NCBI GenBank assembly: GCA_003117195.1
Contig: BDSI01000150.1
Coordinates: forward strand, 216,708-280,707
DNA: 64,000 nt
Direction of reading: 5' to 3'
Source of the DNA: Eudorina sp. 2006-703-Eu-15
Lineage: Eukaryota > Chlorophyta > Chlorophyceae > Chlamydomonadales > Volvocaceae
Part shown: positions 43,633-64,000 of the stretch, in pieces
Numbering within the stretch: position 1 is the first letter of the stretch
How the letters are laid out: every line of letters starts with the position of its first letter
The notes under the pieces: generated by a model
What the model was told of the DNA's origin: nothing
Databases searched by the model: none
Seen by the model: only the letters and a program-made list of their open reading frames with translations
Made by a program: the position numbers and the translations under genes

Positions 43633-44133
43633 ATGGAACAACTCCTGGTGCAGGTGAATAACTGAGGACAGGCAAAACAAGCTGAAGACTCGGACACTGT
43701 AGATCCAATTGCAAACGGTTCAGACCTCCTAATCGATAAAACCAGAATGGCACACACGGCTGTGCGACACACAGCAGGAAATAAACGAGCGACAGGAGGA
43801 CAGGCTCCTAAGTGTTGCGGCGATGGCAACGTTCGACCTACTGATCAGGCAGGTGAATTGCGCGGCACGGGCGCGCTGTATGGCTACCTAAAAGGACAGC
43901 TTGCTTAGATGAAAATGATGACGGGCTTACCGACGGAACGAGCAGCCCTCTGGGACGGAACCTCGAACAAGCAAGGGCGACGACAAAACAAAGCCGAAAT
44001 CTGCGCGTCCGCAGACCCGGACCCCAGAATCACTCACTTTGTTTTTCCCTTCTTGAAGCCTTGACGGCTTTTCGGCTGGGATGCGGTGTTAAAAGGGGAT
44101 GGAGGTGGGAACGGACGACTATCTACAAGCTCC
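43633..44133 (-). repeat. Inverted copy of retrotransposon 5' end (left arm)
   Basis: Reverse complement of 44,167-44,668 with few differences: a 4-bp insertion near 44,122 and an 8-bp deletion near 43,952. The 33-bp spacer 44,134-44,166 separates the arms. The arms end abruptly at ATGGAACA / TGTTCCAT. Confidence 0.93.
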
Positions 44134-44166
44134 ACCAGTGTGCCTTCGCAACAGCTCTTCATCGTC

Positions 44167-44668
44167 GGAGCTTGTAGTCGTCCGTTCCCACCTCCATCCC
44201 CTTTTAACACCGCATCCCAGCCGAAAAGCCGTCAAGGCTTCAAGAAGGGAAAAACAAAGTGAGTGATTCTGGGGTCCGGGTCTGCGGACGCGCACATTTC
44301 GGCTTTGTTTTGTCGTCGCCCTTGTTCGGGGTTCCGTCCCAAAGGGTGCAGAGGGCTGCTCGTTCCGTCGGTAAGCCCGTCATCATTTTCATCTCAGCAA
44401 GCTGTCCTTTTAGGTAGCCATACAGCGCGCCCGTGCCGCGCAATCCACCTGCCTGATCAGTAGGTCGAACGTTGCCATCGCCGCAACACTTAGGAGCCTG
44501 TCCTCCTGTCGCTCGTTTATTTCCTGCTGTGTGTCGCACAGCCGTGTGTGCCATTCTGGTTTTATCGATTAGGAGGTCTGAACCGTTTGCAATTGGATCT
44601 ACAGTGTCCGAGTCTTCAGCTTGTTTTGCCTGTCCTCAGTTATTCACCTGCACCAGGAGTTGTTCCAT
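44167..44668 (+). repeat. Right arm of 5' inverted duplication
   Basis: Pairs with 43,633-44,133. It lies just inside the proposed 5' end of the element and is followed by coding-like sequence from about 44,670. Both arms carry the same open frame (PSPQHLGACPPVARLFPAV), which is best seen as part of the duplicated leader rather than a gene. Confidence 0.9.
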
Positions 44669-45589: not shown

Positions 45590-47727
45590 GGACTTCGGTA
45601 TTAATCTGGATTCGTCACAAGACTCTGGACCTTCTTCCGCTCTCCTGCGCCGCAACCCGCCTCGTGGCGCCACCAATCAGTTATATCGCTCCAACTCCGC
45701 GCGCGACGCGCAGGAGGTAAGTTCCAGGGAGGGCAAGAACTTTAAGAGGACTTCAGCATCAGGGTCTCCGGGTGGGTCAGGCTCGGGTGATCCTGAGGGT
45801 GATAGTGGGCCCTCATCAGCCCTTGCGTCGGGTCGTTCCTTACGAGGGAGTCAGGGCGTCGGGTCCGGTGTAGCTGCTCTTCCTCCGTCGGGGGCCGGGC
45901 GGGCTGGTACTTCTGTTAACCCTAGCAATTCTGTATTCGCGTGCCAGCAAAAACATCTCGCAAGTCAGTGGGCCAAGTTCCTTGAGTTTGTTACGCGGCC
46001 TAGATAGACATACTCAGCCACCTCCTCAGCCGTACGACTGGGAAGACATGAGTGGCGGTAGCTTTCCCGTACTAGAACCCTTTCACTGTAAGGGTGTGGA
46101 TGGGTTCTTACACGAGGTGAAACAAAAGGCGCTGGTGGATGTAGAATTGAAACACGGCGCCGGGTCGGTCACGCCGGCCACCTTCTTTCAAGTGCTAGAT
46201 AGCCTGCCGAAGCCCCACAGTAGGCATGCGGACTGGTGGGACACAAAGAAGAGCACCTTCTTAGCCGATGCAGCCGCGCACGTACAAGCGGCTCAACCGC
46301 AGCAGGCTCCCGCAGCGGCGCCCGCTGCAGGCGCGCCTGCCGCTCAGCCCGCCGTCACTCCTGTCGCTCCCATGGCTACCGCGTGGCAGCTGTTCGATTA
46401 CTACAAGCATATTCTTACTGAGCATTTCAAAGCTGAGGCCGAGCAGGCGGATCACGGCGAATTCACTAGCGCCGTTCAGGGTGACGGGAAGCCCAGCGAC
46501 TACTACCAACACCTTAGAACCCTGCACGCCGGCTTAGCGGGCAGGGTCAGCACGTATCAGCTGGCGGAGCGTTTCGTAGAGGGTTTGCACCCGACCGTGC
46601 GCGAACACGTTAGGCGCGAACTCATGCGGTACCCGGGCACGGACTGGTACAACCGCATGGCCCAGACCGTCACGGATGCGGACCGCATCTGGGAGAACCT
46701 TAGCCCGGATGAGTGAAAGCCCACGAGCGCAGCCAAGCATGCGGAAAAGACCGAGAAGGCGGACAAGCCGCGCACGACGCAGCAGAAGGGGTCCTCTGAC
46801 AAAAAGGGGATGTTCCTGTGCGAGAAGCACGGCTGGAACACCAGCCACACCACTGCTGACTGTCGTGTGCTCCAGAACCAGGTCCGGTCCCGTCCCGCCA
46901 TGGTCTCAACCGGTGCGGCGGACGGGATCGTGCAGCAACTCGTCGCACTGTTGACGCAAAGCGCCGCAGCAAACCAGAAGCCCGCGCAGCCTAACCCAGC
47001 CCAGAAACCGCGCCGTCCCGCGGTAGCTGGGGCTGGCCCATCCGGATCGGGTGGCTCTGGCCCACCCCGGCAGGGCCAGCAGGGTGGGCCGCGGCGCCCT
47101 CGCAGCGAGCTGCATTGTGACTTTTGCTTCCTATCCGGTCACTTACGTGACCGGTGCTTCATCGAGCATCCGGAACTCGCGCCCGCGGGCTTCAAGCCCA
47201 GCAGCCCAGCCCTCCAGGTGCTGTTCGAGCTGCAGAAGGCGAAAGCCCCAAAGGTGGCGGCCGCCGCGTGTGTCGAGGAAGATGATTTCGCTGAGGACGA
47301 CTACCAGTCAGCGTCCGCGCTTGTTACCCTCAAGCTGGATGACGTCTCAGCCTCCAGCAGCTCCGCGCTCGCCTGTGCGGAGGCGGAGCTGCCGGGGCCC
47401 AGCTCTGAGTCGCGCACGTTCCTGGATTTGCCCAGCTACCACCCATACGGTCGCGTATCGGAGGTTCGCGAACCGTGCACTTTTTTGTCTTACACCGAAC
47501 AGCAGCTTGCCGCGGCCATGGAGGTGCCAAGCGCACCCCCGACGCCGTCAGGGCTGTCTTGGAACGAGCAGCCGCAGCCGCGGCGAGGCAGCAGGTGCCT
47601 AAGAGCTTCGAGCCGCAGCCGCTTGACGCAGATAGGTACCCAGTCCCTGCGGTCCCCAAGGAACCTGTGCGAAAGCCGTCGTTGCCACCCTCAGACGAAG
47701 TGTCCATTCAGCGTCTGTCGCGCATGA
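45590..47727 (+). pseudogene. gag: Retrotransposon gag (capsid-nucleocapsid), broken
   Basis: The first part (45,590-46,007) is a Ser/Gly-rich frame ending WAKFLEFVTRPR-stop. The capsid-like part uses another frame from about 45,982 (PYDWEDMSGGSFPVLEPF, LAERFVEGLHPTVREHVRRE, WYNRMAQTVTDADRIWENL). An in-frame TGA at 46,714 interrupts it, after which the same frame continues to 47,727. Two zinc-knuckle-like motifs follow: CEKHGWNTSHTTADC and a canonical CCHC, CDFCFLSGHLRDRC. Gag packages the RNA into virus-like particles. The TGA could derive from CGA by CpG deamination. The end overlaps the next ORF by ~250 bp in the -1 frame, as in elements that express pol by frameshifting. Confidence 0.75.
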
Positions 47728-50700
47728 GTGTGCTCGATTTTGCCAAGCGTGTGGTTGGCGCTCAGGCGCCGGCTGCTGAGGAACCCGTGCCAGTCCCGGG
47801 TGACTCCAGTGTGGCCGCGGCCACGTGTGGCAGTGAGCCCGCTTCCGTGCCGGATACGACGCAGGACGATGCACAGTCGGTGGCACCAAAGCTGGTCACG
47901 TCTGTAAAGCCTCAGGACATCAGCTTGTTGACAAGCCCCTCATGTCAGGGAGGGCAGACCATATCAAGCGTCATAAATAAGCACTTCTCCACTGATACTT
48001 TTGCCTACGAGGTCGCGGGTTCTGCGTCGGTGCCCCCGCGGACCTTGAGTTCCATTCCCGTTTCGGAGCGTGAGACTGCCTTACGATGCAACCCTATGGC
48101 CGCGCGGTACCTTACCACGCCGGCGGGCATGTACTACTACCCCAAGCAGGCCTGTGCCATTGAGCGTGAGGGCCGGCAGGTGCATGTTCCTGCCCTTCGT
48201 GATTTTGCGGCAACCGCTAGCCTCATTCCTACGTCGGTGGCACGCGCCCACAACCTGCCCATCAAACCCACAAACACCCGGCTGTCAACTTCTGCGCAGC
48301 TAGGATGCAGTGTGCGCGGCGAGTTGGATGTGAGCGGTCTTTACCTGACGCTCCTGCCGGGCACACCGCACGCCACCAGGGTGCCGTTTACCCAGACCCT
48401 GGTGGTGGACGTGGCACTGCACGTGTTCCATCTCCTGGTTGGCAACGAGCAAGCCAAGCTGTGGGGCAATGGCTTGGACTCCTACCCCACGCCGCGTCTG
48501 CACTTTCACCCCAACCTGGTTGAGTATCCGGAATATTGTGTCACCATTCCCATGCAACCGGTCATAAGCAACACGAACAAAACGGCGCAGCTGGCCGTTG
48601 CCTGTGTTAGCGCGACCACGGACAGCTCGTCTCCCTCTGGTTCCGATCTGGGGGGGGAACCAGCCAACGCTGCCAGCATGCCCGTCGAGCCCATGCACTG
48701 TTCCACGGGGGATGCCGCACCGCCACCAGCAGCATCTCCCTCACCAAAGCCAGCCAACGCTGCCAGCATGCCAGTCGAGCCCATGCACTTCTCCACGGGG
48801 GATGCCGCACCGCCACCAGCAGCATCTCCCTCACCAGGCGGAGCTCAGCCATCCAAGTGCGTAACGTCTCTGCCAAGGCATATTGCCAGCTGGGGCATGT
48901 GGAAGGGCGTCCTCACGTACCTCCTCACCAGCCTGCTCACGCTGATCTCCACGTCCACCGCATTCTGTTGCGCCGCGGCAAAGCCGGTGGGGATGGTTCT
49001 GGATCGGCTGATCGAGTCAGCGTGCATGGCGACTGCCTCGTTCCCTGTTACACCACCACTTTCGACCCGGTCATCCGTCGAGCGCAAGGGTAAGCGCAAG
49101 CGGGCTCGTTTGGGGCGCCGTCAGAAGAGTGTTAGCAGTCCCCCACCCGCTCAGCGGACCTGGTTCAGCCTTGCTTCCTTTGCGCTCGTCACTTGTTTGC
49201 TGTTCACACTCGCTGCGGGTGCTGGTGCCATGCACGGCGCCGTGCTTGACAGTGACCTTGCATCTATATCTTCCAATGTCGTGACTTCCGGGGGCATTCT
49301 CTTGCAACACGGGGGTGTTCGTCTGCCTGAGTACGGCGGTTTGGGATATGATCCTTGGGCAGAGACAGATCCTAGGGACTATGCGCGATGGGAGACGCGG
49401 GGTCACGCCATGGCTATGGCCAGTGTGGGATCTTTCACCCCTGAGGGAAATTCGGCCGCCGCTGCCTATCAGCGCTACGTGAAGGACAGTGATGGGGGAT
49501 GGATTTGGGGAAATAGTTCCTTGTTTGAGCCCAGTGCGTCACACGCCTTGCGCGAGGCCGTTCGCATGCACAAGGGCAAGGCTTTTGCGTACAGCATGGA
49601 GGAGCTGCCCGGTTACTCGGGTGAGCAGGGGCCGTTCACCTTAGATTTGGACACCGATCGCCCCATCGTGCAACCGCCGCGCCGGTACTCGCCGAAGGAA
49701 AAGGAGGTTATCATGCAGAAAACGGCGGAGCTGGTCAAGGCGGGCATAGTCCTTGAGCATACGGGTCCCACGGTGTGCGCTGTCAATCCTGTGATCGCCG
49801 CCAAGAAGGATCCTGACACGGGCCTGTGGACGGATCACCGTATGGCGCAAGACTACCGACCGGTGAACAAGCATACCCGATCTGACAGGTATGGACTCCA
49901 CCGCCCGGAGGACATTTTCCATCAGTGTGCTAAGGCGAAGGTTTTCTCTAAGTTGGACCTTAGGCAGGGCTTTCTGCAGATCCCTATTGCCAAGCAGGAC
50001 CAGCCCAAAACTGCGTACTGGATGGGTAATAAGTTGATGATGTACGGCCGTATGCTGTACGGGTTGAAAAATGCGTCTGCCAAGTTTCAACGGGTCATGG
50101 ATTACGAGTTGGCTAAGGCCGGCTTAGACCACTGCGCCCGTGCGTACATTGACGATGTTTTAATCTTCAGCAATTCCCCCCAGGAACATGTGCAGCATGT
50201 CGCTGCTGTCCTCGATGCCCTTCACTCATGTGGTCTTCGTGCGCATCCGGATAAATCCATTTTCGGAGCTGATGTCATTGAGTATTTGGGTCACAACCTG
50301 AGCGCGGACGGAATCAGCCCTCACCACGCCAAGGTGTCCGCGATCCTGAACCTTCCCACTCCTCGCAATGTGTCTGAGCTTCGCGCTGACATGGGTTTCA
50401 TCAATTACTACCGGTGCTACATCCCCAACATGAGCCTGCTCACCACCGATCTCACGGTGCTTCTCAAGAAGGATCAGCCATGGGTGTGGGGTCCCGCTCA
50501 GGATGCAGCTTTCACCGCGCTCAAGTCCGTATCCTCCAAGGAGGGGTTGATTCTTCGCCCTATCGACTACTCCAGGCCCCTCATCTTGCACACCGACTTC
50601 TCCAACAAGGGGTTGGGTGCCGTGCTGGGTCAGCTGGACGACCAGGGCAACGAATACATGTGCGCCTGCATCAGCAGATCACTCAATAAGCATGAGCGGA

Positions 50701-51605
50701 ATTACAGCAGCTACAAAGGTGAGATGCTCGCGGCCGTGTGGGCAGTGAAAATGTTTAGACATCACTTGTTGGGTGGTCCGAAGTTCAGCTTGGTCACTGA
50801 TCATCAACCTCTCACGTACCTCATGAGTGCGGACAGGCTCACGGGCCAGTACGCCCGGTTTGCCCTTGTACTGCAAGAATACGACTTTGAGGTTATCCAT
50901 CGCCCGGGTCTCAAGCATCAAAATGCTGATGTGTTGTCGCGACATCCTGAGGAGACGACCGCTGATAATACCGGTGCCCGGCTGGATGAGGAGGATTTGG
51001 CCGGCGTTCGGCATGTGTCTGCTGCCCTGTCGCATGCATCTCAGGAGTGCACAGCAGTGCGCACCGCACTGTCTTCCCACGTGCCGCACGCTAAGTTTTC
51101 CGACGACTTTTGCTTTGTCCCTGACCAGTTTCTGTCGGGCCATCTGGGCCTTCCGTCTGATGTGATAGACATGCCTCCATCTAAGGAGTCTGACTTGGTC
51201 AGGGAGCGTCGTGACGCCGTTCATGCCTCGGCGGTCAAGTGGGTCCGTTCAGCTGCGCGCGCCAATCCCGAGCTTTTCGCAAATACTTCACATCCTACGT
51301 CCCGCGCATTCTTTTCTCAAGCCTTGGGTAAGGGAGTCACTGTTTACGAGCCCTTGGGGGGCATGTGTGCTGGTCTGGAGGCCCTGCTTCGGTGCGGCGT
51401 CCGGGTGAACCGCTACATCTCGTCTGAACCAGATCCAGTTGCCGCTCAAATCGTGTCTGCGCGCTTGGATCGGTTGAGCGCTGAGTACCCCACGCAGTTC
51501 GCCCCTGACTCCTACAAGCGTGTGTGGTTGGACCTTCCTCTTGATCCCCGCAAAGTAACGGAGGAATCACTCATGGCCACTGGAGCTTGTGACGGCTCCC
51601 AGTAG
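47475..51605 (+). CDS. pol: Retrotransposon pol part 1: protease-like, reverse transcriptase, RNase H, start of methyltransferase
   Basis: A 1,376-residue open frame with residue 1 at 47,475; true coding probably begins near 47,545. Around residue 241, RDFAATASLIPTSVARAH is the aspartic-protease position, with DFA instead of DTG/DSG. Residues ~475-500 and 561-587 are hydrophobic helices between protease and RT. RT runs from ~707 (PGYSGEQGPFTLDL) through VFSKLDLRQGFLQIPI to the catalytic YIDDVLIFS (~890). RNase H begins at ~1037 (LHTDFSNKGLGAVLG), with KGEMLAAVWAVKMF and LVTDHQPLTYL. From ~1289, VYEPLGGMCAGLEALL starts a methyltransferase. The frame stops at TAG 51,603 inside that domain, but the same frame continues beyond. 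These enzymes copy the element's RNA into DNA. Confidence 0.9.
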   Translation: MHFFVLHRTAACRGHGGAKRTPDAVRAVLERAAAAAARQQVPKSFEPQPLDADRYPVPAVPKEPVRKPSLPPSDEVSIQRLSRMSVLDFAKRVVGAQAPAAEEPVPVPGDSSVAAATCGSEPASVPDTTQDDAQSVAPKLVTSVKPQDISLLTSPSCQGGQTISSVINKHFSTDTFAYEVAGSASVPPRTLSSIPVSERETALRCNPMAARYLTTPAGMYYYPKQACAIEREGRQVHVPALRDFAATASLIPTSVARAHNLPIKPTNTRLSTSAQLGCSVRGELDVSGLYLTLLPGTPHATRVPFTQTLVVDVALHVFHLLVGNEQAKLWGNGLDSYPTPRLHFHPNLVEYPEYCVTIPMQPVISNTNKTAQLAVACVSATTDSSSPSGSDLGGEPANAASMPVEPMHCSTGDAAPPPAASPSPKPANAASMPVEPMHFSTGDAAPPPAASPSPGGAQPSKCVTSLPRHIASWGMWKGVLTYLLTSLLTLISTSTAFCCAAAKPVGMVLDRLIESACMATASFPVTPPLSTRSSVERKGKRKRARLGRRQKSVSSPPPAQRTWFSLASFALVTCLLFTLAAGAGAMHGAVLDSDLASISSNVVTSGGILLQHGGVRLPEYGGLGYDPWAETDPRDYARWETRGHAMAMASVGSFTPEGNSAAAAYQRYVKDSDGGWIWGNSSLFEPSASHALREAVRMHKGKAFAYSMEELPGYSGEQGPFTLDLDTDRPIVQPPRRYSPKEKEVIMQKTAELVKAGIVLEHTGPTVCAVNPVIAAKKDPDTGLWTDHRMAQDYRPVNKHTRSDRYGLHRPEDIFHQCAKAKVFSKLDLRQGFLQIPIAKQDQPKTAYWMGNKLMMYGRMLYGLKNASAKFQRVMDYELAKAGLDHCARAYIDDVLIFSNSPQEHVQHVAAVLDALHSCGLRAHPDKSIFGADVIEYLGHNLSADGISPHHAKVSAILNLPTPRNVSELRADMGFINYYRCYIPNMSLLTTDLTVLLKKDQPWVWGPAQDAAFTALKSVSSKEGLILRPIDYSRPLILHTDFSNKGLGAVLGQLDDQGNEYMCACISRSLNKHERNYSSYKGEMLAAVWAVKMFRHHLLGGPKFSLVTDHQPLTYLMSADRLTGQYARFALVLQEYDFEVIHRPGLKHQNADVLSRHPEETTADNTGARLDEEDLAGVRHVSAALSHASQECTAVRTALSSHVPHAKFSDDFCFVPDQFLSGHLGLPSDVIDMPPSKESDLVRERRDAVHASAVKWVRSAARANPELFANTSHPTSRAFFSQALGKGVTVYEPLGGMCAGLEALLRCGVRVNRYISSEPDPVAAQIVSARLDRLSAEYPTQFAPDSYKRVWLDLPLDPRKVTEESLMATGACDGSQ
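48661..48840 (+). repeat. 90-bp in-frame tandem duplication in pol
   Basis: Two 90-bp copies encode a 30-residue unit (NAASMPVEPMH, then STGDAAPPPAASPSP) between the protease-like and hydrophobic parts of pol. They differ at few positions (Cys versus Phe), so the duplication is recent. Confidence 0.95.
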
Positions 51606-52330
51606 GTGGTGTTTGCGAGCTGGTGCTGGCACGACGTAGGTAAGGAACCGGGCTCCCTTGCACCCGAGTCCTGCGTCGTGGATCACGTCGTTCGCATTGT
51701 TCAGACTCTGCAACGCGTCCAGCGGCGGCCGCCCGCTTATTTCCTTGTTTGTGAGCAGCCTCGTGAGTCCTGGAAGAACGCATGCGCTGCCCAGTCATGA
51801 GTCACGAGTGTGTTCGGTGACCCCATCACGTTTGATGCAGTACAATTTGGCGCACTTGCGCATCGCGTATCCACGCATTGGACAAACCTCTCACCGCCAA
51901 AGCCGCTTGCCGCGGTGATCTCTGGGGTGCAGCCGCCCACCGCGGCCGTGCTCCAGGATGTGCTCTCCCCAGGGCGCACTGTGTGTCTCGCGCAAGCGCC
52001 TGATCCCCCGGGCACGTACCCCCGGAACAAAGTGGGTGAGCCTTTGTGTGTGGCTCCCAGCCTGAGTCGGCCGGAGCTGCAGCGCCAATATGATCTTGTG
52101 TTCGATCCCTGTGAGCCGGAATTGGGCAGTCTAACAGTCCTTGAGTGTGCCCGGGCCATGGGCTACCCTGATGACGCCACAGAGGCTCGAGAGGTGAGCG
52201 AGGCTCAGAAGCGCCGCATTCTGGGTCTTGCGCCCGACTTGGCCTCCACCGTTGGTGTGTTGTCTTTGTGCCGAGTTCTTTCCAACACGCCACTGCATGA
52301 GGTCGTTGCTGCGTGTGCTCTGAGTGACTC
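51310..52330 (+). other. Cytosine-C5 DNA methyltransferase domain within pol
   Basis: In one frame, broken by TAG (51,603) and TGA (51,798), the C5-methyltransferase motifs follow in order: motif I EPLGGMCAGLEALLRCGV with the SAM-site acidic SSEPDP; the catalytic-loop position SWCWHDVGK (Pro-Cys reads Trp-Cys, Cys kept); motif VI YFLVCEQPRES (ENV reads EQP, Glu kept); motif VIII FDAVQFGALAHRVSTHWTNL, close to the DNMT3 IDAxxVSAAHRARYFWGNLP; and the C-terminal LECARAMGYPDDATEA...RRILGLA, like the ErExxxGFPxxYT...R..LLG end. About 330 residues, as expected for a catalytic domain. The family transfers methyl groups from SAM to cytosine in DNA. It sits exactly between RNase H and integrase. Homology is strong by motif order; activity in this copy is unlikely. 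Confidence 0.85.
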
Positions 52331-54524
52331 GTCCCCAGCTGTGCCTGAGCCGTCTCATGGCCTGGCCTATCCCCTGTTTCCCTGCGAGCCTGTTTCCCCT
52401 TGGCCCACGGTCTTCGCCGCGGCTGTCCAAGCGGAGCAGGAGGACTCTTCGGGGTCCCAGGGACGATGGCCGGACATCTGGGATGATGAAGCATCTATGC
52501 ATTTCCTTCGTACGGGCACGCACGTGTCCAACCTGCCCCCGTCCGAGCAAAGGCGTGTCACGCGGAGGGTTCGTGCCTACCGCATGCAAGGGGGTGAGTT
52601 GTACCGCGTGTTCAACGATTCCAAAGCACGTCTGGTTCCCAAGCCTTCTGATCGTGTGGAACTGATCAAACTCACGCACGAGGAGACTGGCCATTTCGGG
52701 GTACGTCGTACTGTCGCGCTGCTGCTTACCCGTCACTGGTGGCATGGCGTCTACCGAGACATAGTCAACTTTGTCAAACACTGTGAGCATTGTGATCGTG
52801 TTAATACTTCGTTTTCAGCCCCGTCGCCTGACCTGCATCCATTGCCGGTACAGGGCTTGTTCTATCGCTGGGGCGTGGATCTTTGTGGCCCGTTCACTCG
52901 CACCAATTCGGGGAATGTCTACGTGATGATTTGCGTAGAGCATTTCTCTAAGTACGCAGTTTTTGTTCCGTTGCCTGATAAGGAGGCCGATCACACGGCT
53001 TCCGCGTTCTTGCACCATATCCTAGGGCGCTACGGTGCATGCGCCGAGGTCTGCACCGACCAGGGTAGTGAGTGGAAGGGTGCCTTTTCGTTGCTCTTGC
53101 TGAATTCGCTGATAGATCATCGTGAGACGTCACCCAACCACCCGCAGGCCAATGGTTTGGCGGAACGGGTGGTCCAGACCTGCAAAAGAGCGCTCCGTCG
53201 CATGGCGCGGCAGCGGGCTGAAGGCAGGGATTGGGATGAATTGTTACCGTACGTCATGTTAGGTTATAACTGTTCCGTGCATCAGTCCACGGGGTTCAGC
53301 CCTTACCTCATCATGCATGGTGTAGAGCCCACCATTCCCCCTGCGATCAAACCCCGATTCGCGGATAACATCTCCTTCGACAACCCTGAGCTAGCCGCCT
53401 CATCGCTTCTCTCACGAGGGGAGGCCATGCGGCAGCGCATCTCCATTGCTGGGGATAACCTGCTGATCGCGCAGCACAGGGACATCCTTCGGTATGCTGC
53501 TCTTCGTGGGGGTGGCTACCATCCAAAAATGCGCGAGTTCGAAGTTGGGGACTATGTCTACTACCGCAATACTACTTCTCAGACGACGCTGGACCCCGCC
53601 GCCAGGCCCACTATTCTGCGGTTCATTGAGGTGCGGCCCACCGGTGTTTTGGTTCTTCAGGGTCAGAACGGGTTGACACTCAAATCTCACGTAAAGGATT
53701 GTGCTCCTTGCCACCTGCCCATTCGGGATGAGACTGTGGATCCACGTCTTGCTAAACCCTCTGCTTTGCTCCCTTGTGAAGTGTGCCGATCCCCGTCCGG
53801 TGACGAGTGGATGTTGCTCTGCGATGGCTGCGGGAAGGGCTGGCACACGTACTGTCTCACTCCCCCGTTGCGTCGCATCCCCGAGGGTACCTGGGTGTGC
53901 CCCGAGTGCGTCGCTCAAGGTGTCACTCCCCAGCAGATTGATGCCAGGCCTCTTGCCAAGGTGCCTGTTCCCGATGTATCCCCCAAGCCTGTGCCCGAGC
54001 CCCCTTCGTACCTAAAGCATCTGCAGGGTGCCAGGGTGCTTCGCACAGGGTCCGGGATGGGTGCGCAAGGTGCTGTGTCCGGCATTGCCACTTACGTAGG
54101 CCTTCAGGGCCGCACTCATTTGTTTGACGTCGTGTATCAGAATGGCGCTAGCGAAATGGTCACGGTACGACAGCTGCGCACTATGCTTGCCCCCACTAGT
54201 CCACGCCCAACACGTGTTCTGCGCGCCTCAGCGGCGGTGACCTCCGTCCAGTCAGGGGATTGGAGCTTGGAATCTGGGGGGGCGGTAGCCGCTGCACTCT
54301 CTATGGCCATGCCTGGGGCGGGAGCACTCCGCGTCCAAGGTTGCACTCATCTCCAATGCGCTGTCCAGCAGTTTCACCGAGTCCAGCGTGCCCAGCGAGC
54401 ATGTCGATGTGTTGAAGTCGGCGTTGGATCTGGGCATGGTGGGGGAGGTCGTTTGCCCTTGGGAGGTCTCGCCGGCGGTGCGGTCGGTTTTGATGTCGCA
54501 TGGTGTCCGCATCATGAAAGGTAA
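51810..54524 (+). CDS. int: Retrotransposon pol part 2: methyltransferase C-half, integrase, PHD finger, Tudor/chromo-like segment
   Basis: A 904-residue open frame, the continuation of the pol frame after TGA 51,798. Residues 1-165 finish the methyltransferase. The integrase has the HHCC zinc site (HEETGHFGV...HWWHGVYRDI...CEHC, from ~289), the catalytic triad regions WGVDLCGPF (~353), CTDQGSEW (~414) and NHPQANGLAERVV (~446), and a C-terminal FEVGDYVYYR block. Residues 656-700 form a PHD finger: CEVC, LLCDGCGKGWHTYC, WVCPEC (Cys4-His-Cys3). At ~757-790, GIATYVGLQGRTHLFDVVYQ, then EMVTVRQL resembles a Tudor- or chromo-type barrel. PHD fingers read histone H3 tails, so the module may target integration; that is inference. 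After ~835 the frame is low-complexity because the coding frame shifts. Confidence 0.9.
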   Translation: MFGDPITFDAVQFGALAHRVSTHWTNLSPPKPLAAVISGVQPPTAAVLQDVLSPGRTVCLAQAPDPPGTYPRNKVGEPLCVAPSLSRPELQRQYDLVFDPCEPELGSLTVLECARAMGYPDDATEAREVSEAQKRRILGLAPDLASTVGVLSLCRVLSNTPLHEVVAACALSDSSPAVPEPSHGLAYPLFPCEPVSPWPTVFAAAVQAEQEDSSGSQGRWPDIWDDEASMHFLRTGTHVSNLPPSEQRRVTRRVRAYRMQGGELYRVFNDSKARLVPKPSDRVELIKLTHEETGHFGVRRTVALLLTRHWWHGVYRDIVNFVKHCEHCDRVNTSFSAPSPDLHPLPVQGLFYRWGVDLCGPFTRTNSGNVYVMICVEHFSKYAVFVPLPDKEADHTASAFLHHILGRYGACAEVCTDQGSEWKGAFSLLLLNSLIDHRETSPNHPQANGLAERVVQTCKRALRRMARQRAEGRDWDELLPYVMLGYNCSVHQSTGFSPYLIMHGVEPTIPPAIKPRFADNISFDNPELAASSLLSRGEAMRQRISIAGDNLLIAQHRDILRYAALRGGGYHPKMREFEVGDYVYYRNTTSQTTLDPAARPTILRFIEVRPTGVLVLQGQNGLTLKSHVKDCAPCHLPIRDETVDPRLAKPSALLPCEVCRSPSGDEWMLLCDGCGKGWHTYCLTPPLRRIPEGTWVCPECVAQGVTPQQIDARPLAKVPVPDVSPKPVPEPPSYLKHLQGARVLRTGSGMGAQGAVSGIATYVGLQGRTHLFDVVYQNGASEMVTVRQLRTMLAPTSPRPTRVLRASAAVTSVQSGDWSLESGGAVAAALSMAMPGAGALRVQGCTHLQCAVQQFHRVQRAQRACRCVEVGVGSGHGGGGRLPLGGLAGGAVGFDVAWCPHHER

Positions 54525-54888
54525 GTCTGCCGATCCTAAGGGGCCGTTGGTGCCGTCGTTTTATGAGTCCGTGCAGCGGCAGGTGTCCGCCGTCCAGTCT
54601 GTGTTCTTGTCTGCTTCCGGTCATGTGCTTGATCTGGCCTTGCCAGCGGCAGTCCGTTTCACGCAAAGTTTCGTGGTGGCGCGTGTCCCTGTGTCATATA
54701 TCGCTACGGCGGATGAGTTGCGCATGCGCTGGTTGAAGTCGTTGCAGCGGCAGGGTCGTTTGCTTATGCTGCGCTGCCCCCTTGTTCCGTCCGAGGAGGC
54801 GCTGTTCATGTGGGTGATCATTTTCGCGTCGCCGTTGGTCAAGCAGCTGATCGTGAAAGATAGCGGTTTGGTGGAAGATTTGGTTTAA
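54315..54888 (+). CDS. C-terminal retrotransposon ORF of unknown function
   Basis: From ~54,315 the coding signal moves to the +1 frame: SKVALISNALSSSFTES, PSEHVDVLKSALDLGMVGEV, CPWEVSPAVRSVLMSHGVRI, SASGHVLDLALPAAVRFTQS, then FVVARVPVSYI, with the stop at 54,886. It may be an independent product or the last domain of the polyprotein after a frameshift mutation. The alternating hydrophobic strands suggest an alpha/beta fold. It is not one of the standard retrotransposon domains and I do not recognise it. Confidence 0.6.
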
Positions 54889-55739
54889 AGTTCGTGCCTC
54901 GTGGCTTAGTCGCCGCGGATCACCCTGCATGCATCGGGTGACCGCTTGGGGGGAGTCTCCCCTAGGCACTTATTACGTCAGTAGAGCAGTCATACGGCCT
55001 GACAGCTGTCACGCGTTTGGGTGTCATCGTCATTTTACTGCGCAGCAAGCAGCAGTTACCTAATTTGGATTTATGTTGGTTAGTTTGTGGCATTAGCCCA
55101 CCGTTTTGTCGCGAGTGAGGTGTTCCGCCGCGATGCGTTATGGTGCGCGTTGTAACCGCCGCCCAGTCGGTAGCCGGCCCGTAGGTGTGAGGAATCGAGC
55201 GGGAAAGAGTGATCGTTCGATTCGTGAGTTGGGATCAGGTAGCAACCGTGAATTGCTTTGCGTTGTTTATTCCGTTGCGTATATCTTGGCGTCTTATTTG
55301 CGTGTGTATTGGAGCGCCGTGTTGCGGCAAGACTCCAGTCGGCCTTACGAAGTTGAGAGGCGTTCGAGCCCACGAGGTCGTACGTCTGCGTTTGCGCTTA
55401 TTAGCCAAAAGCGTGCTGGTAAGCATCGCTTTTCGGCTCTGTCTGGATGATTGTAAGCGTCCTCTGAGCTAGACTAAAGGCCCTGTGCATTTCTGTCGCA
55501 CAAGTATTTTGCTCCTGATCACATCACCACTCACATTGGCATCTTTTACCGGCAGCTCAGCGCGTGGGAACTCGCGATCCTCACGCTCTGTTGTAACAGC
55601 CGGCGCGGTGAGAAGGGGACTTACAGCTTTCTGCTTTGCAGCGCTGTGCGAGCGCACGTGGTGTGCCTTCGCAACAGCTCTTCATCGTCGGAGCTTGTAG
55701 TCGTCCATTCCCACCTCCATCCCCTTTTAACACTGCATC
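54889..55739 (+). other. 3' non-coding end of the retrotransposon
   Basis: Begins after the last ORF. A purine-rich GGGGGGAG at 54,948 could be a polypurine tract. A ~60-bp block here (54,946-55,005, with GAGCAGTCATACGGCCTGAC) recurs at 56,006-56,065, and the last 79 bases match the 5' end. LTR boundaries cannot be fixed from this. Confidence 0.5.
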
Positions 55740-55870
55740 AGTAGCCGCGCCGTTGGTGTTCCCTGTTGCGAGTCTGTTGCCATCATGTCGGACACTGTCT
55801 GAGCATGCCGTGCTTGTCGTACATTTCGGGTCTCGGTCGCCATGTACTTCATATTGCCAGCTACGCATGC

Positions 55871-55948
55871 TGGTCGCTTATTGCCGCATTTGGACGCAAT
55901 TACTGGCTCTGGTCGCTTATTGCCGCATTTGGACGCAATTACCTCACG
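55871..55948. repeat. 39-bp tandem duplication
   Basis: Two copies of TGGTCGCTTATTGCCGCATT-TGGACGCAATTAC start at 55,871 and 55,910. Confidence 0.95.
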
Positions 55949-56069
55949 CATCCACACCACACCACCTGGAACCCATCTTTCCAGCTTTGCTACTGCGTTG
56001 CACGCTGGGGGGGGAGTCACGGGTAGGCACATGATACGTCAGAGAGCAGTCATACGGCCTGACAGGCGG

Positions 56070-56809: not shown

Positions 56810-57230
56810 GGGGTCATCTACGGTAATGGCACTCTGTACAGAGATCCGCGGTTCGAATATCGACTCCTTCCCCGCCATGTGAAACCGAGGGTCTGGCGCG
56901 GTTTTCAGGAGAGGCAAACCTGGCGCGCTGGTAACCTGGTGTGTTGGCCGGTATGGCTGCATGACCCTCCGAGGGTGGTGGAGGATGGGTGCGCAGTCCT
57001 TTGGTAGGGGTTGATGAGATGAGGCGCCTACGAGCTATCTGGGCCCGTTGGAACACCCGGTCGGGACTCGGTCCACCTTGTAAAGGTTACTACTACTTGT
57101 GGAGCCTGTCCGGTGCGCAAAAGTGGCGCGGTTTCGTTTTTGCAGTTTACAGTGCGGAGGCTGCTGCTGTCACCGATGACCCGCGGGATCCACTTTTACA
57201 TCATTAATTAATAGAAGTGGGAGCGGACGC
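56810..57230 (+). repeat. Repeat R2, copy 1, encoding the AVTDDPRDPL C-terminus
   Basis: From ~56,905 (GGCAAACCTGGCGCGCTGG) to the ATTAATTAATAGAAGTG end, it matches 61,136-61,440 directly and 60,360-60,120 in inverted orientation (partly). The last frame reads GPPCKGYYYLWSLSGAQKW, then RGFVFAVYSAEAAAVTDD, then PRDPLLHH and a stop at 57,205, apparently the end of a mobile element's protein. Confidence 0.75.
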
Positions 57231-57724
57231 AAAAGGCAATGGAGCAGGGGTTTGGTATGTTGTCATAATTATTATACCCAATGGCATTTTGCAGCGGACT
57301 TCATCTCTTCAAGACATTTTAACGGCATGACATGCAAACCTGGAATGCAACCGTGGCTCGGGAGTCGGAACCACCGTCGGAAAGTGACTGGCGCTGCCAT
57401 GGAGTTGCGTGTGCAGGGGTCGCCTGCAAGGGTCGTATGCTGTTCCAAGCTGCGAGCAAATAGGGAGAGTGTTCTTGGGTAGAATTTTATTGGTAAGGCG
57501 GGATAAGGCTCCTGGCTCAATGCACTGTCAGCCAGTCGCACGCGCCCAACCGCACGCTGGATGGCATCTGCATCCCGTTCTGCACATTGACCCACATGAG
57601 CGTCCGTGTTGCCACGCTCCAATTCTATTAACTTCTATTATTTGCATTGCACGAATATGGCAACTTCGCGCGTGTCGCAACACTCTGCACTCTGACACTG
57701 CCCCTCTGTTGCCATGATTGACCG

Positions 57725-57752
57725 CAATTGTGTATAACATTATACACAATTG
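57725..57752. repeat. Perfect 13-bp inverted repeat
   Basis: CAATTGTGTATAA and its exact complement flank a 2-base centre. The palindrome's other arm carries it at about 63,758-63,786 with a slightly different centre. Confidence 0.9.
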
Positions 57753-58486
57753 TTGTCTGAGGACCCATAGGGCAAATCGTATAGTGCACGGCCCTTTGAA
57801 TTGCGAGTCGTCGTCGTGATTTCGGACGTTGAATGGAAAATGCGCAAAAGGCGTGATTGTTACTTGGTTATTTACAATGAAATCATACATGATTTTTTAC
57901 TCAACCATGTTTAATGAAAAATAAAAGAAACGTGCTTTATGGTGCTGAACAGTCAGAAACTTGGTCAGAAGTGTGAGCGACCCGATAACTTTTATATAAT
58001 CAATGACCATGCAACCTGAATCGTTTTTGTGTTTGATCAATAAGATGTTATGATTGCTTAATTGTAAAATTATAAATTCAGCCAGCAGAAATACAATGTC
58101 CGGAAGGAACGAACAGAAAGCGTTTCTGATGACTGAACAGCATGACTTCACAACAACCAACGCGAGTTAGCATTTAGTACCAATAACTTGTAAATTCTAC
58201 ATATGTTAGTTCTCAGGCAGCGCTTTGGTGATGCCTTTGGCACATCCCTCCCGCAATACGATAGTATACTTGTATGAATGAAACTTACCACAGCTCTGAT
58301 TGATCACAGCTCTGCCGCTTGCAACTTTTTTACGTGATGAACTTCATGCTGCCTTCTGAGGCAAGATTACACAGACGACGCAAGTACACCAAATCCGCAT
58401 CGAATTGTTCGGCCGTTACTTCGTCAGCCGTACTTCAACGTCGTTTTTGCACAATACATTCAAACTCATGCCGGACATCATGAAAA

Positions 58487-60362
58487 TTGAAAGCCATATC
58501 TGCATTTCAAGGGATTGACACCCGGCTCGACTGCAAAGCAACCCACTGCGGAGACGGGCTGGCGCAGTGCCTGGCGCCCCGATCATCGCCGGCTTTTATC
58601 CTGTGCTCTAATAGCTTCATTGGCATCGTTGGTCGACGAGCGGTGGCGGGCTCAGCGCATCACAGTCGATGTTGAAACGCTTTGCGCAATGTTTTCGCTG
58701 CGACACGAGGACCACGCGCGACCTTGAGGAGCTTCCGTTCACGGGCTGCGGTCCTGAGGAACGGCGCTCGGCTCACCAAGGGCCCGCCTTGCGCTTACTA
58801 ACGCGCGCCGACATTTTGGGTTATGCCGAGTCATCTCGACCTGTCCTGGTGTTCGCCAACAGCGAGGCTCCTGGCAGCGGCAAGACTGCGGCGCAGAACT
58901 CGGCCGACCAACAGAACCCAGTGTCCAGAGGTCACAGCCGCGCGGCGCTCGTCTACTGCAACCGAGCGGCGGCATGCTTGCTCGGGTTGGATTTGGGTGA
59001 TAAGCGGGTCGGCGTCGCAACGCAGCCAGAAGCGTCCCTGAGGCGGCTCTTGACCGAACTCTCGGTCTTGGACTGTCCTTTCCTGCCTTTGGTGGGCGAG
59101 GTCCTCCAACTCCATGAAGCCGGAGCAGAAGCAGCCGCTGTCACAGCTGCCCTGGACGCCCTCAGGGCGGCAGCGCCGATTCGCGTGCGGCTCAACCGCA
59201 ATGCGGCAATGCACGCTTCACGGGGGGATGCAAGCCCTGCAGCGGCGGCATCAGCGTCCCCGCGGGGTACACTGCCACCTCCAACCCGACCACCAGCGAT
59301 GCCTCCAAGTCATACACACGGAGGCGGTCATGTACAAACGGAGCCTTGGCAACCGCGGCAGCAACTGCTTGTTTCGACTCGCAACTGCCGCTGTCGAAGA
59401 GGCCACGAGCCGGCTGCCACAGAGTCAGCAGCAGCAGGAAGCGGCTCCGGGCTTGTGGACGTCACGAAGCAGTGGTCGTCCGGTGGACTCATCTGCTGTC
59501 AAAGCCACTCGTACTGTCAGTACCGCCGCCGCAGAATGTCAGCAGCAGCAGCAGCAGGGCAAGCTCCCGGGTGACCAGGGCAGGGTGCCAGACGCCTTCA
59601 GTGATGATGGCGACTGTGACTATGTGCTGTGCCCTGCTGTCGTGGCCGTGTTCGGCAACAGTCAGGACAGCGCCTCCAGTGCGACAGGTGCTCCGCGTGG
59701 CATCCCTGCCAGTGGTGTTAATGTCGATGCCGGTGTGGCTGCTGGTGTTGCGGCGGGCCCGGCGGCCGTTAGCGGCAGTTGTGAGGCGGCCAGCGGCGCC
59801 GCCGCAGCACGCAGACGCGTTGGGAGTGCGACGGGGACCCGGACGGCACCCGACGCGGTCAGCCAGCAGCGTATCTCGATCCAGGGAGCCGTGCCCGCCC
59901 GCGCCGCCCTTGGAGGGGACTGCTGCCGGCAGTCCGCATGGGGCAGTGGTGGCGATCGAGCCCGTCTTGCCTGTGGCTGAGAAGGCCATCCCAGATTCGA
60001 CCACCACCAAGATAGGGGACCTCCTGGTTCCCAATGAGCCTGCTTCAATTTCATCAGTGGCGGTATTGGCGGAGGCGGAGGCAGTGACAAGCGTGTTCAA
60101 TGCAGGTGGCATAGGCCAGCAGCAGCCATTGCACCTTGACACTCCGCTTTTGCGCACCGGACAGGCTCCACAAGTAGTAGTAACCTTTACAAGGTGGACC
60201 GAGTCCCGACCGGGTGTTCCAACGGCCCACATAGCTCGTAGGCGCCTCATCTCATCAACCCCTACCAAAGGACTGCGCACCCATCCTCCACCACCCTCGG
60301 AGGGTCATGCAGCATACCGGCCAACACACCAGGTTACCAGCGCGCCAGTTTGCCTCTCCTGA
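58487..60362 (+). pseudogene. Degenerate ORF locus in left palindrome arm
   Basis: The open frame 58,669-59,574 begins MLKRFAQCFRCDTRTTRDLE and includes ILGYAESSRPVLVFANSEAP, RAALVYCNRAAACLLGLDLG and LQLHEAGAEAAAVTAALDAL. Coding character then appears in other frames up to 60,362 (RGSNCLFRLATAAVEEATSR; AFSDDGDCDYVLCPAVVAVF). LVYCNRAAACLLGL faintly recalls a PAS/MEKHLA-type core, but I would not assign it. The second arm carries the same locus with different indels, so at least one copy is broken. Either the locus is a spliced gene or a frameshifted one; sequence alone does not decide. Confidence 0.4.
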
Positions 60363-60651
60363 CAAGTAGGGGTCGGCTTCCTCGAAGCCGGAAAAGGGCG
60401 GGGCCCCTATAATCCGTACAGGCCGCTTGCTTTAGAAGGAAAACTCTATTACCGCGCAACAGTGTGAGAGAGTGAAAGGTTGACATTGGGGGTGTCGTTG
60501 ATGTTGAAGGGGGATCGGCGTGCATAGATTCACCAAGCCCAAACACGTCGGCAGCCCCGAAACCATCCTGCAGTACGCGCCGCGGGCGACGGCGGTCACC
60601 GTATCGGCACTATGGTAACGATAGTCGCTTCTGCACTACCACATCCGTCTG
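60361..60651 (+). repeat. Repeat R1, copy 2 (truncated)
   Basis: Direct copy of the first 291 bases of R1, ending at ACATCCGTCTG where the palindrome arm ends. Confidence 0.85.
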
Positions 60652-61129
60652 GGTCTCACCGCGGCTTTTCGCACCTGTTTTTGCGCTTACATTTGATATG
60701 TACTATTGATAGCAAACTTTAGAGGTTCACGTCTGCTGCGAGCGTGCAACTGAAAGGTTGCATGCCTGCGACGGACCAAACAACTACAGTTTCACGGCAA
60801 AACAAGGATGCTTCAAGCTTGCTTTGTGATCATCTGCTTGACAGACGGATGTGGTAGTGCAGAGGCGACTATCGTTACCATAGAGCCGATACGGTGACCG
60901 CCGTCGCCCGTGGCGCGTACTGCAGGATGGTTTCGGGCTGCGACGTGTTTGGGCTTGGTGAATCTATGCAGCGCCGATCCCCCTTCAACATCAACGACAC
61001 CCCCAATGTCAACCTTCACTCTCTCACACTGTTGCGCGGTAATAGAGTTTTCCTTCTAAAGCAAGCGGCCTGTACGGATTATAGGGGCCCGCCCTTTTTC
61101 CGGCTTCGAGGAAGCCGACCCTACTTGTC
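60652..61129 (-). repeat. Repeat R1, copy 3 (complete, inverted)
   Basis: Reads as R1 on the minus strand from GACAAGTAGGG at 61,129 to GCGGTGAGACC at 60,652. The palindrome spacer (60,652-60,841) is therefore just the distal ~190 bases of this copy, which the left arm's copy lacks. Confidence 0.85.
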
Positions 61130-61135
61130 AGGAGA

Positions 61136-61440
61136 GCAAACCTGGCGCGCTGGTAACCTGGTGTGTTGGCCGTATGGCTGCATGACCCTCCCGAGGGTGG
61201 TGGAGGATGGGTGCGCAGTCCTTTGGTAGGGGTTGATGAGATGAGGCGCCTACGAGCTATGTGGGCCCGTTGGAACACCCGTCGGGACTCCGGTCCACCT
61301 TGTAAAGGTTACTACTACTTGTGGAGCCTGTCCGGTGCGCAAAAGCGGCGCGGTTTCGTTTTTGCAGTTTACAGTGCGGAGGCTGCTGCTGTCACCGATG
61401 ACCCGCGGGATCCACTTTTACATCATTAATTAATAGAAGT
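61136..61440 (+). repeat. Repeat R2, copy 2 with AVTDDPRDPL ORF end
   Basis: Direct copy of ~56,905-57,215. It encodes GPPCKGYYYLWSLSGAQKR then GFVFAVYSAEAAAVTDD then PRDPLLHH-stop (61,429). Confidence 0.8.
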
Positions 61441-61916
61441 GCCTCCGCCTCCGCCAATACCGCCTGATGAAATTGAAGCAGGCTCATTGGGAACCAGGAG
61501 GTCCCTATCTTGGTGGTGGTCGAATCTGGGATGGCCTTCTCAGCCACAGGCAAGACGGGCTCGATCGCCACCACTGCCCCATGCGGACTGCCCGGCAGCA
61601 GTCCCCTCCAAGGGCGGCGCGGCGGGCGCACGGCTCCCTGGATCGAGATACGCTGCTGGCTGACCGCGTCGGGTGCCGTCCGGGTCCCCGTCGCACTCCC
61701 AACGCGTCTGCGTGCTGCGGCGGCGCCGCTGGCCGCCTCACAACTGCCGCTAACGGCGCCGGGCCCGCCGCAACACCAGCAGCCACACCGGCATCGACAT
61801 TAACACCACTGGCAGGGATGCCACGCGGAGCACCTGTCGCACTGGAGGCGCTGTCCTGACTGTTGCCGAACACGGCCACGACAGCAGGGCACAGCACATA
61901 GTCACAGTCGCCATCA

Positions 61917-63002: not shown

Positions 63003-64000
63003 TCCCTTGAAATGCAGATATGGCTTTCAATTTCATGATGTCCGGCATGAGTTTGAAGTTTTGTGGCAAAAACGACGTTGAAGTACGGCTGACGAAGTAA
63101 CGGCCGAACAATTCGATGCGGATTTGGTGTACTTGCGTCGTCTGTGTAATCTTGCCTCAGAAGGCAGCATGAGTTCATCATGTAAGAAAGTTGCAAGCGG
63201 CAGAGCTGTGATCAATCAGAGCTGTGGTAAGTTTCATTCATACAAGTAAACTATCGTATTGCGGGAGGATGTGCCAAAGGCATCACCAACGCGCTGCCTG
63301 AGAACTAACATATGTAGAATTTACAAGTTATTGGTACTAAATGCTAACTCGCGTTGGTTGTTGTGAAGTCATGCTGTTCAGTCATCAGAAACGCTTTCTG
63401 TTCGTTCCTTCCGGACATTGTATTTCTGCTGGCTGAATTTATAATTTTACAATTAAGCAACATAACATCTTATTGATCAAACACAAAAACGATTCAGGTT
63501 GCATGGTCATTGATTATATAAAGTTATCGGGTCGCTCACACTTCTGACCAAGTTCTGACTGTTCAGCACCATAAAGCACGTTTCTTTTATTTTCATTAAA
63601 CATGATTGAGTAAAAAATCATGTATGATTTCATTGTAAATAACCAAGTAACAATCACGCCTTTTGCGCATTTTCCATTCAGTGACGTCCGAAATCACGAC
63701 GACGACTCGCAATTCAAAGGCCGTGCACTATACGATTTGCCCTATGGGTCCTCAGACAACAATTGTGTATAATGTTTATACACAATTGCGGTCAATCATG
63801 GCAACAGAGGGGCAGTGTCAGAGTGCAGAGTGTTGCAACACCGCGAAGTTGCCATATTCGTGCAATGCAAATAATAGAAGTTAATAGAATTGGAGCGTGG
63901 CAACACGGACGCTCATGTGGGTCAACGTGCAGAACGGGATGCAGATGCCATCAGCGTGCGGTTGGGCGCGTGCGACTGGCTGACAGTGCATTGATCCAGG

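What the first reader, a model, noticed from the sequence alone, without database searches (positions are those of the whole stretch)
51310..52330. Cytosine-C5 DNA methyltransferase domain captured inside a Ty3/gypsy retrotransposon
Between RNase H and integrase, in the same pol frame, the ordered motifs of a C5-methyltransferase are present (motif I EPLGGMCAGLEALL, SWCWHD loop, CEQP, FDAVQFGALAHR, LECARAMGYPDD). Standard Ty3/gypsy pol has no such domain. Capture of cytosine methyltransferases by retrotransposons has, from memory, been reported in dinoflagellates and a streptophyte alga. A copy in a volvocine-like chlorophyte with this exact position would be a separate case. A mobile element carrying its own methyltransferase could methylate its copies to escape or manipulate host silencing.
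Basis: partly seen in the sequence, partly recalled or inferred. Interest (0 to 1): 0.93.

Follow-up and report, generated by a model that had tools for sequence, protein, structure and literature searches.

The report
Retrotransposon carrying a disarmed DNA methyltransferase
A jumping gene in a genome that is likely a green alga's carries, inside its copying-and-pasting protein, a domain descended from a DNA-methylating enzyme whose active-site residues have been replaced; it likely no longer methylates DNA, yet its sequence is still conserved, so it would seem to do some other job for the element.

Summary
In detail: a DNMT3-type cytosine methyltransferase domain lies at 51285-52328, in the pol frame between RNase H and integrase of a Ty3/Gypsy-type element. 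It is no one-off: the genome has 24 matches at 96-100% (window included) and seven further families with the same insert, many stop-free. Pfam PF00145 misses it, but a family profile finds only DNMT3 chains in the PDB (29 of 29, best 1.5e-9), a family B model's 50 listed folds are all DNMT3, and a profile of catalytic relatives matches it at 1.7e-63. Outside 11 disarmed rows, 167 of 168 relatives keep the catalytic Cys (the other ends before it); the window family reads CWH where they read PCQ, and lacks the motif VI Glu in register and the second Arg of RxR. No family here keeps the set, nor do the Pleodorina, Tetrabaena and Chlamydomonas rows. dN/dS still points to purifying selection. Best reading: a captured DNMT3 turned into a non-catalytic Pol module. 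DNMT3 in Gypsy pol is published for Klebsormidium; loss of catalysis with the domain kept I met in no paper opened or listed by ten searches. At least two losses are favoured, not settled.

The parts
51285..52328 (+). DNMT3-type cytosine-C5 methyltransferase domain, catalytic residues replaced
   Evidence: profile of 37 catalytic relatives, E=1.7e-63 with X at two stops; PDB profile hits of the family alignment all DNMT3
51621..51635 (+). codons for WCWHD, in place of W[P/E]CQD (motif IV); Trp stands at the catalytic Cys column
51603..51605 (+). in-frame TAG inside the domain (this copy is broken)
51798..51800 (+). in-frame TGA inside the domain (this copy is broken)
49830..50300 (+). reverse transcriptase (RVT_1)
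   Evidence: Pfam 7e-22
50487..50882 (+). RNase H (RT_RNaseH_2 / RT_RNaseH)
   Evidence: Pfam 3.4e-25 / 2.4e-31
52644..52808 (+). integrase zinc-binding domain (Integrase_H2C2)
   Evidence: Pfam 5.2e-15
52866..53144 (+). integrase core (rve)
   Evidence: Pfam 1.1e-6, 29.3 bits, under the curated cut-off of 32.6
53775..53909 (+). PHD finger behind the integrase
   Evidence: Pfam 1.2e-11
45874..46716 (+). gag-like frame
   Evidence: Retrotrans_gag E=0.01, under its cut-off: weak
54289..54888 (+). C-terminal part of the polyprotein, in another frame in this copy; continuous in P0001
   Evidence: read by eye; no Pfam family over its cut-off
44138..44216 (+). remnant of the 5' terminal repeat A1 (last 79 nt); an inverted duplication lies where the rest should be
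   Evidence: 2 mismatches in 79 to the end of A2; longer A1 in other copies
43633..44668 (.). palindrome at the 5' end of this copy
   Evidence: 94% self-inverse
54954..55004 (+). short repeat B1
55007..55739 (+). long repeat A2
   Evidence: matches the 5' repeat of other copies
56015..56064 (+). short repeat B2, end of the element (..CCTGACA); 275 nt of extra sequence lie between A2 and B2 in this copy

Best explanation
The segment is a DNMT3-type cytosine-methyltransferase domain built into the pol of a Ty3/Gypsy-type element between RNase H and integrase, in a lineage where the catalytic residues have been replaced, so that it likely works as a non-catalytic module of the element's Pol and not as a methylase. 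Shown here: homology to a domain that still has the catalytic set in relatives from other green algae; replacement of the motif IV Cys (PCQ to CWH), of the motif VI Glu in register and of the second Arg of RxR; retention in this family of motif I, of the motif III Asp and of the Gly and Asp of motif X (AdoMet side); dN/dS well under 1 in three of four domain comparisons; identical terminal repeats in two copies, so recent movement. Inferred: that catalysis is gone, and that the fold is kept because it still binds DNA (perhaps AdoMet) or holds the RNase H and integrase parts together. Together with the PHD finger it would help the integration complex dock on or choose chromatin, much as DNMT3L (recalled) is a dead DNMT3 that works by binding.
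For: Homology: A2 profile against PDB, 29 of 29 matches are DNMT3A/3B/3C, best 1.5e-9; with six catalytic relatives added, best 2.7e-13, the first 26 of 48 rows DNMT3, then 4onj 'DNA methyltransferase' 3.2e-8, DRM2 3.7e-5, HhaI 7.8e-4; Foldseek of the family B model (pLDDT 77.5) and of the family F model (pLDDT 66.9): all 50 listed rows of each are DNMT3 entries. Order RNase H < MTase < integrase in 108 of 108 relatives in which motifs for all three were found (a loose motif test; 35 of 179 rows without the RNase H motif and 41 without the integrase motif were not counted). Loss of the set: 179 protein rows have the domain; Cys at the catalytic column in 167; the 12 without are P0001-P0010, P0012 and P0020, a fragment that ends before it. 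Own families A-H: none has Cys + motif VI Glu + second Arg + motif IV Ser, which are each about 100% in the catalytic rows. Genome-wide, the DNA pattern for GW[A/D/E/H/P/Q]CQD has 3 matches against 13 for its reversed control, none at a domain locus listed; WCWHD has 40 against 3. Retention: A against B over the domain, dN/dS about 0.04-0.05; two G copies, without motif IV Cys, 0.18; two B copies 0.11. Eight A copies have no stop over query residues 4-236 of the domain. A1 and A2 are 100% identical over 738 and 735 nt in the two copies compared.
Against: No assay; a replaced residue is not proof of a dead enzyme. Family A has a Cys one position before the catalytic column and a Glu two after the motif VI column; an alignment with two indels would put the Cys in register. 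Family E keeps a Cys in register, and F, G and H the motif VI Glu. dS between A and B is close to saturation, so 0.04-0.05 is rough; C70 against C56 gives 0.69 on few differences, and A8 against A15 0.47. The domain evolves faster than RT and integrase (A against D: 33% identity, against 79% and 66%). Copies differ from L008 by C-to-T (and G-to-A) about two to three times as often at CpG as elsewhere (59 of 6607 against 83 of 19757; 31 of 6604 against 28 of 19203, unpolarised), which some methylation by whatever enzyme could cause. Models rest on 11 and 8 sequences, no templates. Nothing measured here speaks directly for a role in integration; that step is inference from position and from the PHD finger.
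Confidence: 0.6

Rival explanations
1. It is an active methyltransferase that methylates the element's cDNA or new copies to escape or steer host silencing (the reader's reading, and one of the roles de Mendoza et al. discuss for other elements). The changed motif IV would then be an unusual but working active site.
For: Relatives with the full catalytic set; published DIRS-type DNMT3 domains of Symbiodinium methylate CG (PMC5890265, abstract and section 11); families A to D keep motif I and the motif III Asp; a Cys lies one residue off; a mild excess of C-to-T differences at CpG.
Against: Cys, motif VI Glu in register, second Arg and motif IV Ser all replaced together in A, B and C; families D, F and G have a deletion at motif IV; CpG o/e of the element 0.90 against 0.91 for 40 kb of the window, so no mark of heavy methylation.
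Confidence: 0.14
2. The domain is a decaying passenger: catalysis became useless or harmful in these hosts and the domain is being lost slowly, without a function.
For: Replacement of catalytic residues, deletion at motif IV in families D, F and G, faster evolution than RT and integrase; one related clade has lost the domain altogether and still has RT and integrase (P0038, P0060, P0068, P0094), so the domain is dispensable. That all eight families keep it is no counter-argument, since I found them by the domain.
Against: dN/dS of 0.04-0.18 in three of four comparisons of the domain; matches without a stop over most of the query in eight A, six B, five C and seven D copies and three F copies; the fold is still recognised as DNMT3 in family F.
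Confidence: 0.19
3. The domain binds and misleads host methyltransferases or other silencing proteins (a dominant-negative decoy), as a dead DNMT3 can pair with live ones.
For: DNMT3 works as dimers and tetramers, and DNMT3L is a dead partner (recalled); the fold models match DNMT3 chains, several solved with DNMT3L.
Against: No host DNMT3 found: the two PF00145 exons found in this genome look like DNMT1 and DNMT2 (exon-by-exon search, low sensitivity), and a review passage places DNMT3/DRM homologues only in Cyanidioschyzon merolae and Klebsormidium flaccidum among the algae it covers there (PMC9861306, passages).
Confidence: 0.07

Closest known systems
KnitGypsy-Dnmt3 of Klebsormidium nitens (de Mendoza et al. 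2018, PMC5890265; abstract, sections 9 and 11 and passages read)
   Same: Gypsy domains, DNMT3-type domain in the Pol frame, DIRS-like repeat arrangement with Gypsy domains (figure legend), purifying selection on the domain.
   Different: The paper says its key functional residues are conserved; here they are replaced.
SymbioDIRS-Dnmt3 and SymbioLINE-Dnmt of dinoflagellates (same paper)
   Same: A methyltransferase domain captured by a retrotransposon.
   Different: Other retrotransposon classes (DIRS with tyrosine recombinase, LINE) and, by the paper, conserved key residues.
Catalytic chlorophyte relatives (Haematococcus lacustris P0018, P0022, P0178; Monoraphidium neglectum P0189; Cymbomonas tetramitiformis P0191; many unnamed metagenome rows)
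   Same: Homologous domain between RNase H and integrase where both were found, often with a PHD finger in the precomputed Pfam list.
   Different: Catalytic Cys and Glu kept, Glu-Asn of motif VI too (P0191 reads IECV). PF00145 matched 6 of 10 members of A4; the four without are the own families.
ChloroDNMT lineage of chlorophytes and charophytes (PMC12344493, passages)
   Same: Methyltransferases of green algae.
   Different: Described as often having a PWWP domain; relation to the present domain not tested.
DNMT3L (recalled)
   Same: DNMT3 fold without a working catalytic site, kept by selection.
   Different: A host protein that stimulates DNMT3; no such partner is known here.

Membership tests
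Retrotransposon-borne DNMT3 in Gypsy pol (KnitGypsy-Dnmt3 kind) | DNMT domain inside the Pol frame of an element with Gypsy RT, RNase H and integrase | tested here: met
Retrotransposon-borne DNMT3 in Gypsy pol (KnitGypsy-Dnmt3 kind) | domain of the DNMT3 class | tested here: met
   29 of 29 PDB profile matches DNMT3; DNMT3 ahead of DRM2 and HhaI. No tree against cellular DNMT classes was built
Retrotransposon-borne DNMT3 in Gypsy pol (KnitGypsy-Dnmt3 kind) | conserved key functional residues | tested here: not met
Retrotransposon-borne DNMT3 in Gypsy pol (KnitGypsy-Dnmt3 kind) | DIRS-like arrangement of repeats (here A1-internal-B1-A2-B2) | tested here: met
   both ends of five copies and 3' ends of four more: 4-base target duplications at 4 sites (ATGG, TCCC, GGGT, TTAC); B2 complete in six, a variant in C73, short in C11, missing in C31. 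K. nitens: one figure legend. Tested for the window's family only
Retrotransposon-borne DNMT3 in Gypsy pol (KnitGypsy-Dnmt3 kind) | common descent with the Klebsormidium element | not testable with these tools
Active C5 cytosine methyltransferase (PF00145) | score over the Pfam cut-off | tested here: not met
   0 of 3, 0 of 11
Active C5 cytosine methyltransferase (PF00145) | catalytic Cys in PCQ/PCN and Glu in ENV | tested here: not met
   Trp and Val at those columns in A, B, C; Cys in 167 of 168 relatives outside the 11 disarmed rows
Active C5 cytosine methyltransferase (PF00145) | AdoMet-binding motif I, fold | tested here: met
   motif I acid and Gly kept in A to D; Foldseek of family B
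Active C5 cytosine methyltransferase (PF00145) | methyl transfer | not testable with these tools
   needs an assay
Ty3/Gypsy (Metaviridae) | order RT-RNase H-integrase with Ty3-type domains | tested here: met
Ty3/Gypsy (Metaviridae) | simple long terminal repeats at both ends | tested here: not met
   split repeats instead

The most novel reading that the evidence does not exclude
A captured DNMT3 has been turned, probably at least twice, into a pseudo-methyltransferase inside retrotransposon pol: in every row I saw from Chlamydomonas/Volvox-type hosts of this green-algal Ty3 clade the catalytic set is gone while the domain is kept under selection, as an integration or chromatin-docking module, a retroelement counterpart of DNMT3L.
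Probability: 0.45. Interest if true: 0.87.

Novelty: new variant of a known kind. Interest (0 to 1): 0.72.

Why it matters
Retrotransposon DNMTs are read as tools for self-methylation. Here close relatives differ in exactly that: one set keeps the catalytic residues, the other has lost them and still keeps the domain. That is a natural experiment on what the domain does besides methylation, and it ties loss of catalysis to one group of hosts. It also places DNMT3-bearing Gypsy-type elements across green algae, where one review reports cellular DNMT3 from few species.

Tried and rejected
Rejected: chance resemblance (41 DNA matches and 99 protein match pieces in the genome; profile E=1.7e-63). 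Rejected: one-off insertion of host DNA (same calls). No viral source seen: IMG/VR scans with the domain and with alignment A4 gave no relative (two scans of eight). Led nowhere: NCBIfam on three sequences (one irrelevant weak hit). Number of losses: with RT-RNase H alone (58 rows that I chose out of 129), one clade of all disarmed rows is not rejected (AU p 0.11 without family E, 0.096 with it); with integrase added (48 chosen rows, LG+G4) it is rejected (p 0.0037 and 0.012), but family E with F-H is not (p 0.27). A tree of the domain itself (45 chosen rows, midpoint root) puts the disarmed rows on one side (87/85), which fits long-branch attraction, or one loss followed by domain exchange. 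So at least two losses are favoured, not shown. CpG depletion: none, but a mild excess of C-to-T differences at CpG. Rejected as an argument: that 8 of 8 families keep the domain (they were found by it); with that argument gone I moved 0.02 from the best explanation to the passenger rival. Papers: ten searches listed no title or abstract start on chlorophyte Gypsy elements with a disarmed DNMT3; four papers opened (PMC5890265: abstract, sections 9 and 11, passages; PMC9861306, PMC12344493, PMC11244446: passages), the rest seen as listing only; no supplements; the library lacks most subscription journals and preprints. The script ended in an error before its last pair; one search did that pair.
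Full report
What is there. The window (G000:C150:216708-280707 of an unnamed 181 Mb genome) holds a Ty3/Gypsy-type element between about 44138 and 56064. One frame, 47409-54524, carries reverse transcriptase, RNase H, integrase and a PHD finger, with two in-frame stops, TAG 51603 and TGA 51798, both within the segment reported. The segment lies between RNase H and integrase. The copy looks dead: besides the stops, its 5' repeat is reduced to 79 nt next to a palindrome, and the C-terminal part stands in another frame (by eye).

Ends of the element. Matches of both ends across the genome, both ends of five copies and the 3' ends of four more show split direct repeats: A1 - internal - B1 - A2 - B2, with A about 733 nt and B about 51 nt. 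The copies start TGTC and end CCTGACA, with 4-base target duplications at four sites (ATGG, TCCC, GGGT, TTAC; C1593 and C955, and the 3' end of C1070, share the last one and its flank, so I count one). B2 is complete in six of nine 3' ends, a variant in C73, short in C11 and missing in C31. For Klebsormidium's KnitGypsy-Dnmt3 a figure legend says that the repeats are arranged as in DIRS elements while the domains are those of Gypsy (PMC5890265). A1 and A2 are identical over 738 and 735 nt in the two copies compared (C298, C11), so the family moved recently.

Is it a methyltransferase? Pfam alone says no: no PF00145 for three open copies or any of 11 aligned family members. A single family B sequence finds only DNMT3A/3C chains in the PDB, weakly (17 of 17, best 0.018). 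A profile of the families gives 29 of 29 matches to DNMT3A/3B/3C, best 1.5e-9; with six catalytic relatives added, 48 matches, best 2.7e-13, the first 26 DNMT3, with DRM2 and HhaI further down. AlphaFold models of families B and F (mean pLDDT 77.5 and 66.9) match DNMT3 entries in all 50 listed Foldseek rows each.

Relatives. A search with the family B domain in its pol found one protein, Pleodorina starrii P0001. A search with the RT-RNase H part of P0001 gave 1523 proteins at E 1e-30 or better, 120 listed; a search with the domain of P0057 gave 134 at 1e-5, 120 listed. Together 196 protein rows. A profile built from 37 of them that read AGWPCQ[D/E] matches the window at 1.7e-63 and all eight families of this genome (A to H, weakest H at 1e-14). 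Named rows with the domain: Pleodorina, Tetrabaena, Chlamydomonas, Haematococcus, Monoraphidium, Cymbomonas. The order RNase H, methyltransferase, integrase holds in 108 of 108 rows in which motifs for all three were found. So the capture is spread over green algae and is not a separate volvocine event.

The active site. In 167 of the 179 rows with the domain the catalytic Cys stands at its column, mostly as (A)GW[P/E]CQD; the other 12 are P0001-P0010, P0012 and P0020, which ends before the motif. In the catalytic rows the motif IV Ser, motif VI Glu and the second Arg of RxR are each about 100% (the class was defined by leaving out those 12 rows). Families A, B and C, with P0001-P0003, read A[S/G]WCWHD, VCEQ and AHRxS: a gapless replacement of PCQ by CWH between a conserved Trp and Asp. 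Families D, F, G and H have other residues or a deletion there; E has a Cys in register but Gln for the motif VI Glu and Val for the second Arg; F, G and H keep that Glu. No family has the whole set. Patterns over the whole genome agree: GW[A/D/E/H/P/Q]CQD 3 matches against 13 for the reversed pattern, none at a listed domain locus; WCWHD 40 against 3. WCWHD was read in 35 of 37 loci scanned; of the other two, L026 lacks that part and L027 was not followed up.

Selection. Over the domain, A against B gives dN/dS 0.04 to 0.05 with dS near saturation, two G copies 0.18, two B copies 0.11, two C copies 0.69 and two A copies 0.47, the last two on few changes. The domain changes faster than RT and integrase. 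Families A to D keep motif I and the motif III Asp; E to H erode these in part.

How often was catalysis lost? In RT-RNase H trees the disarmed rows fall in three places among catalytic ones: A-D with P0001-P0010 (sister P0052, catalytic), F-H with P0012 (next to catalytic rows such as P0097 and P0109), and E, whose place is unsure. One clade is not rejected by RT-RNase H (AU p 0.11 and 0.096) but is rejected with integrase added (p 0.0037 without E, 0.012 with E; E with F-H p 0.27). The domain's own tree groups the disarmed rows. I favour at least two losses; one loss with domain exchange is not excluded. Nine of 121 rows of the clade have no domain match; P0038, P0060, P0068, P0081 and P0094 have RNase H and integrase close together and truly lack it, the other four (P0019, P0039, P0058, P0072) are incomplete proteins or could not be judged.

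How it likely works. Catalysis probably gone, fold kept, next to integrase and a PHD finger: a non-catalytic Pol part that helps assembly, DNA binding or chromatin docking. The position and conservation are shown; the function is inferred. The host seems to have DNMT1-like and DNMT2-like exons but no DNMT3 was found. The element shows no CpG depletion (0.90 against 0.91), though copies differ by C-to-T at CpG more often than elsewhere.

Against what is known. de Mendoza et al. 2018 (PMC5890265) describe DNMT capture in dinoflagellate and Klebsormidium elements with conserved key residues, and discuss cDNA methylation; 'chlorophyte', 'Volvox' and 'Chlamydomonas' do not occur in its main text. 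A 2025 survey (PMC12344493, passages) mentions DNMT3 in retrotransposons as reported in streptophytes and dinoflagellates, and a ChloroDNMT lineage whose relation to this domain I did not test. I therefore call this a new variant of a known kind.

Noticed in passing
57511-60083 and 61440-64000: Large inverted repeat, arms of about 2.57 kb at 98% identity, running to the window end, with smaller nested inverted and direct repeats (56902-57219, 60144-61441); a large palindrome, hairpin element or assembly fold-back.
   Followed up: no
relatives P0017, P0018, P0027 and others (37 rows read AGWECQD): In about 40% of the catalytic rows a Glu stands where C5 methyltransferases have the Pro of PCQ: an unusual but otherwise complete motif IV.
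   Followed up: partly
P0058, P0072 behind GARMD: A Cys/His-rich stretch between RNase H and the place of the methyltransferase, perhaps a zinc-binding domain of the ADD kind (by eye).
   Followed up: no
P0038, P0060, P0068, P0094: A well-supported subclade (100/100) of the same Ty3 clade that lacks the methyltransferase and has RNase H and integrase close together.
   Followed up: yes
55740-56014: About 275 nt of extra sequence between A2 and B2 in the window copy; similar sequence beside two other copies (C4, C57).
   Followed up: no
L001 (C76), L002 (C118): The only two PF00145 matches of a whole-genome search look like DNMT1 and DNMT2.
   Followed up: partly
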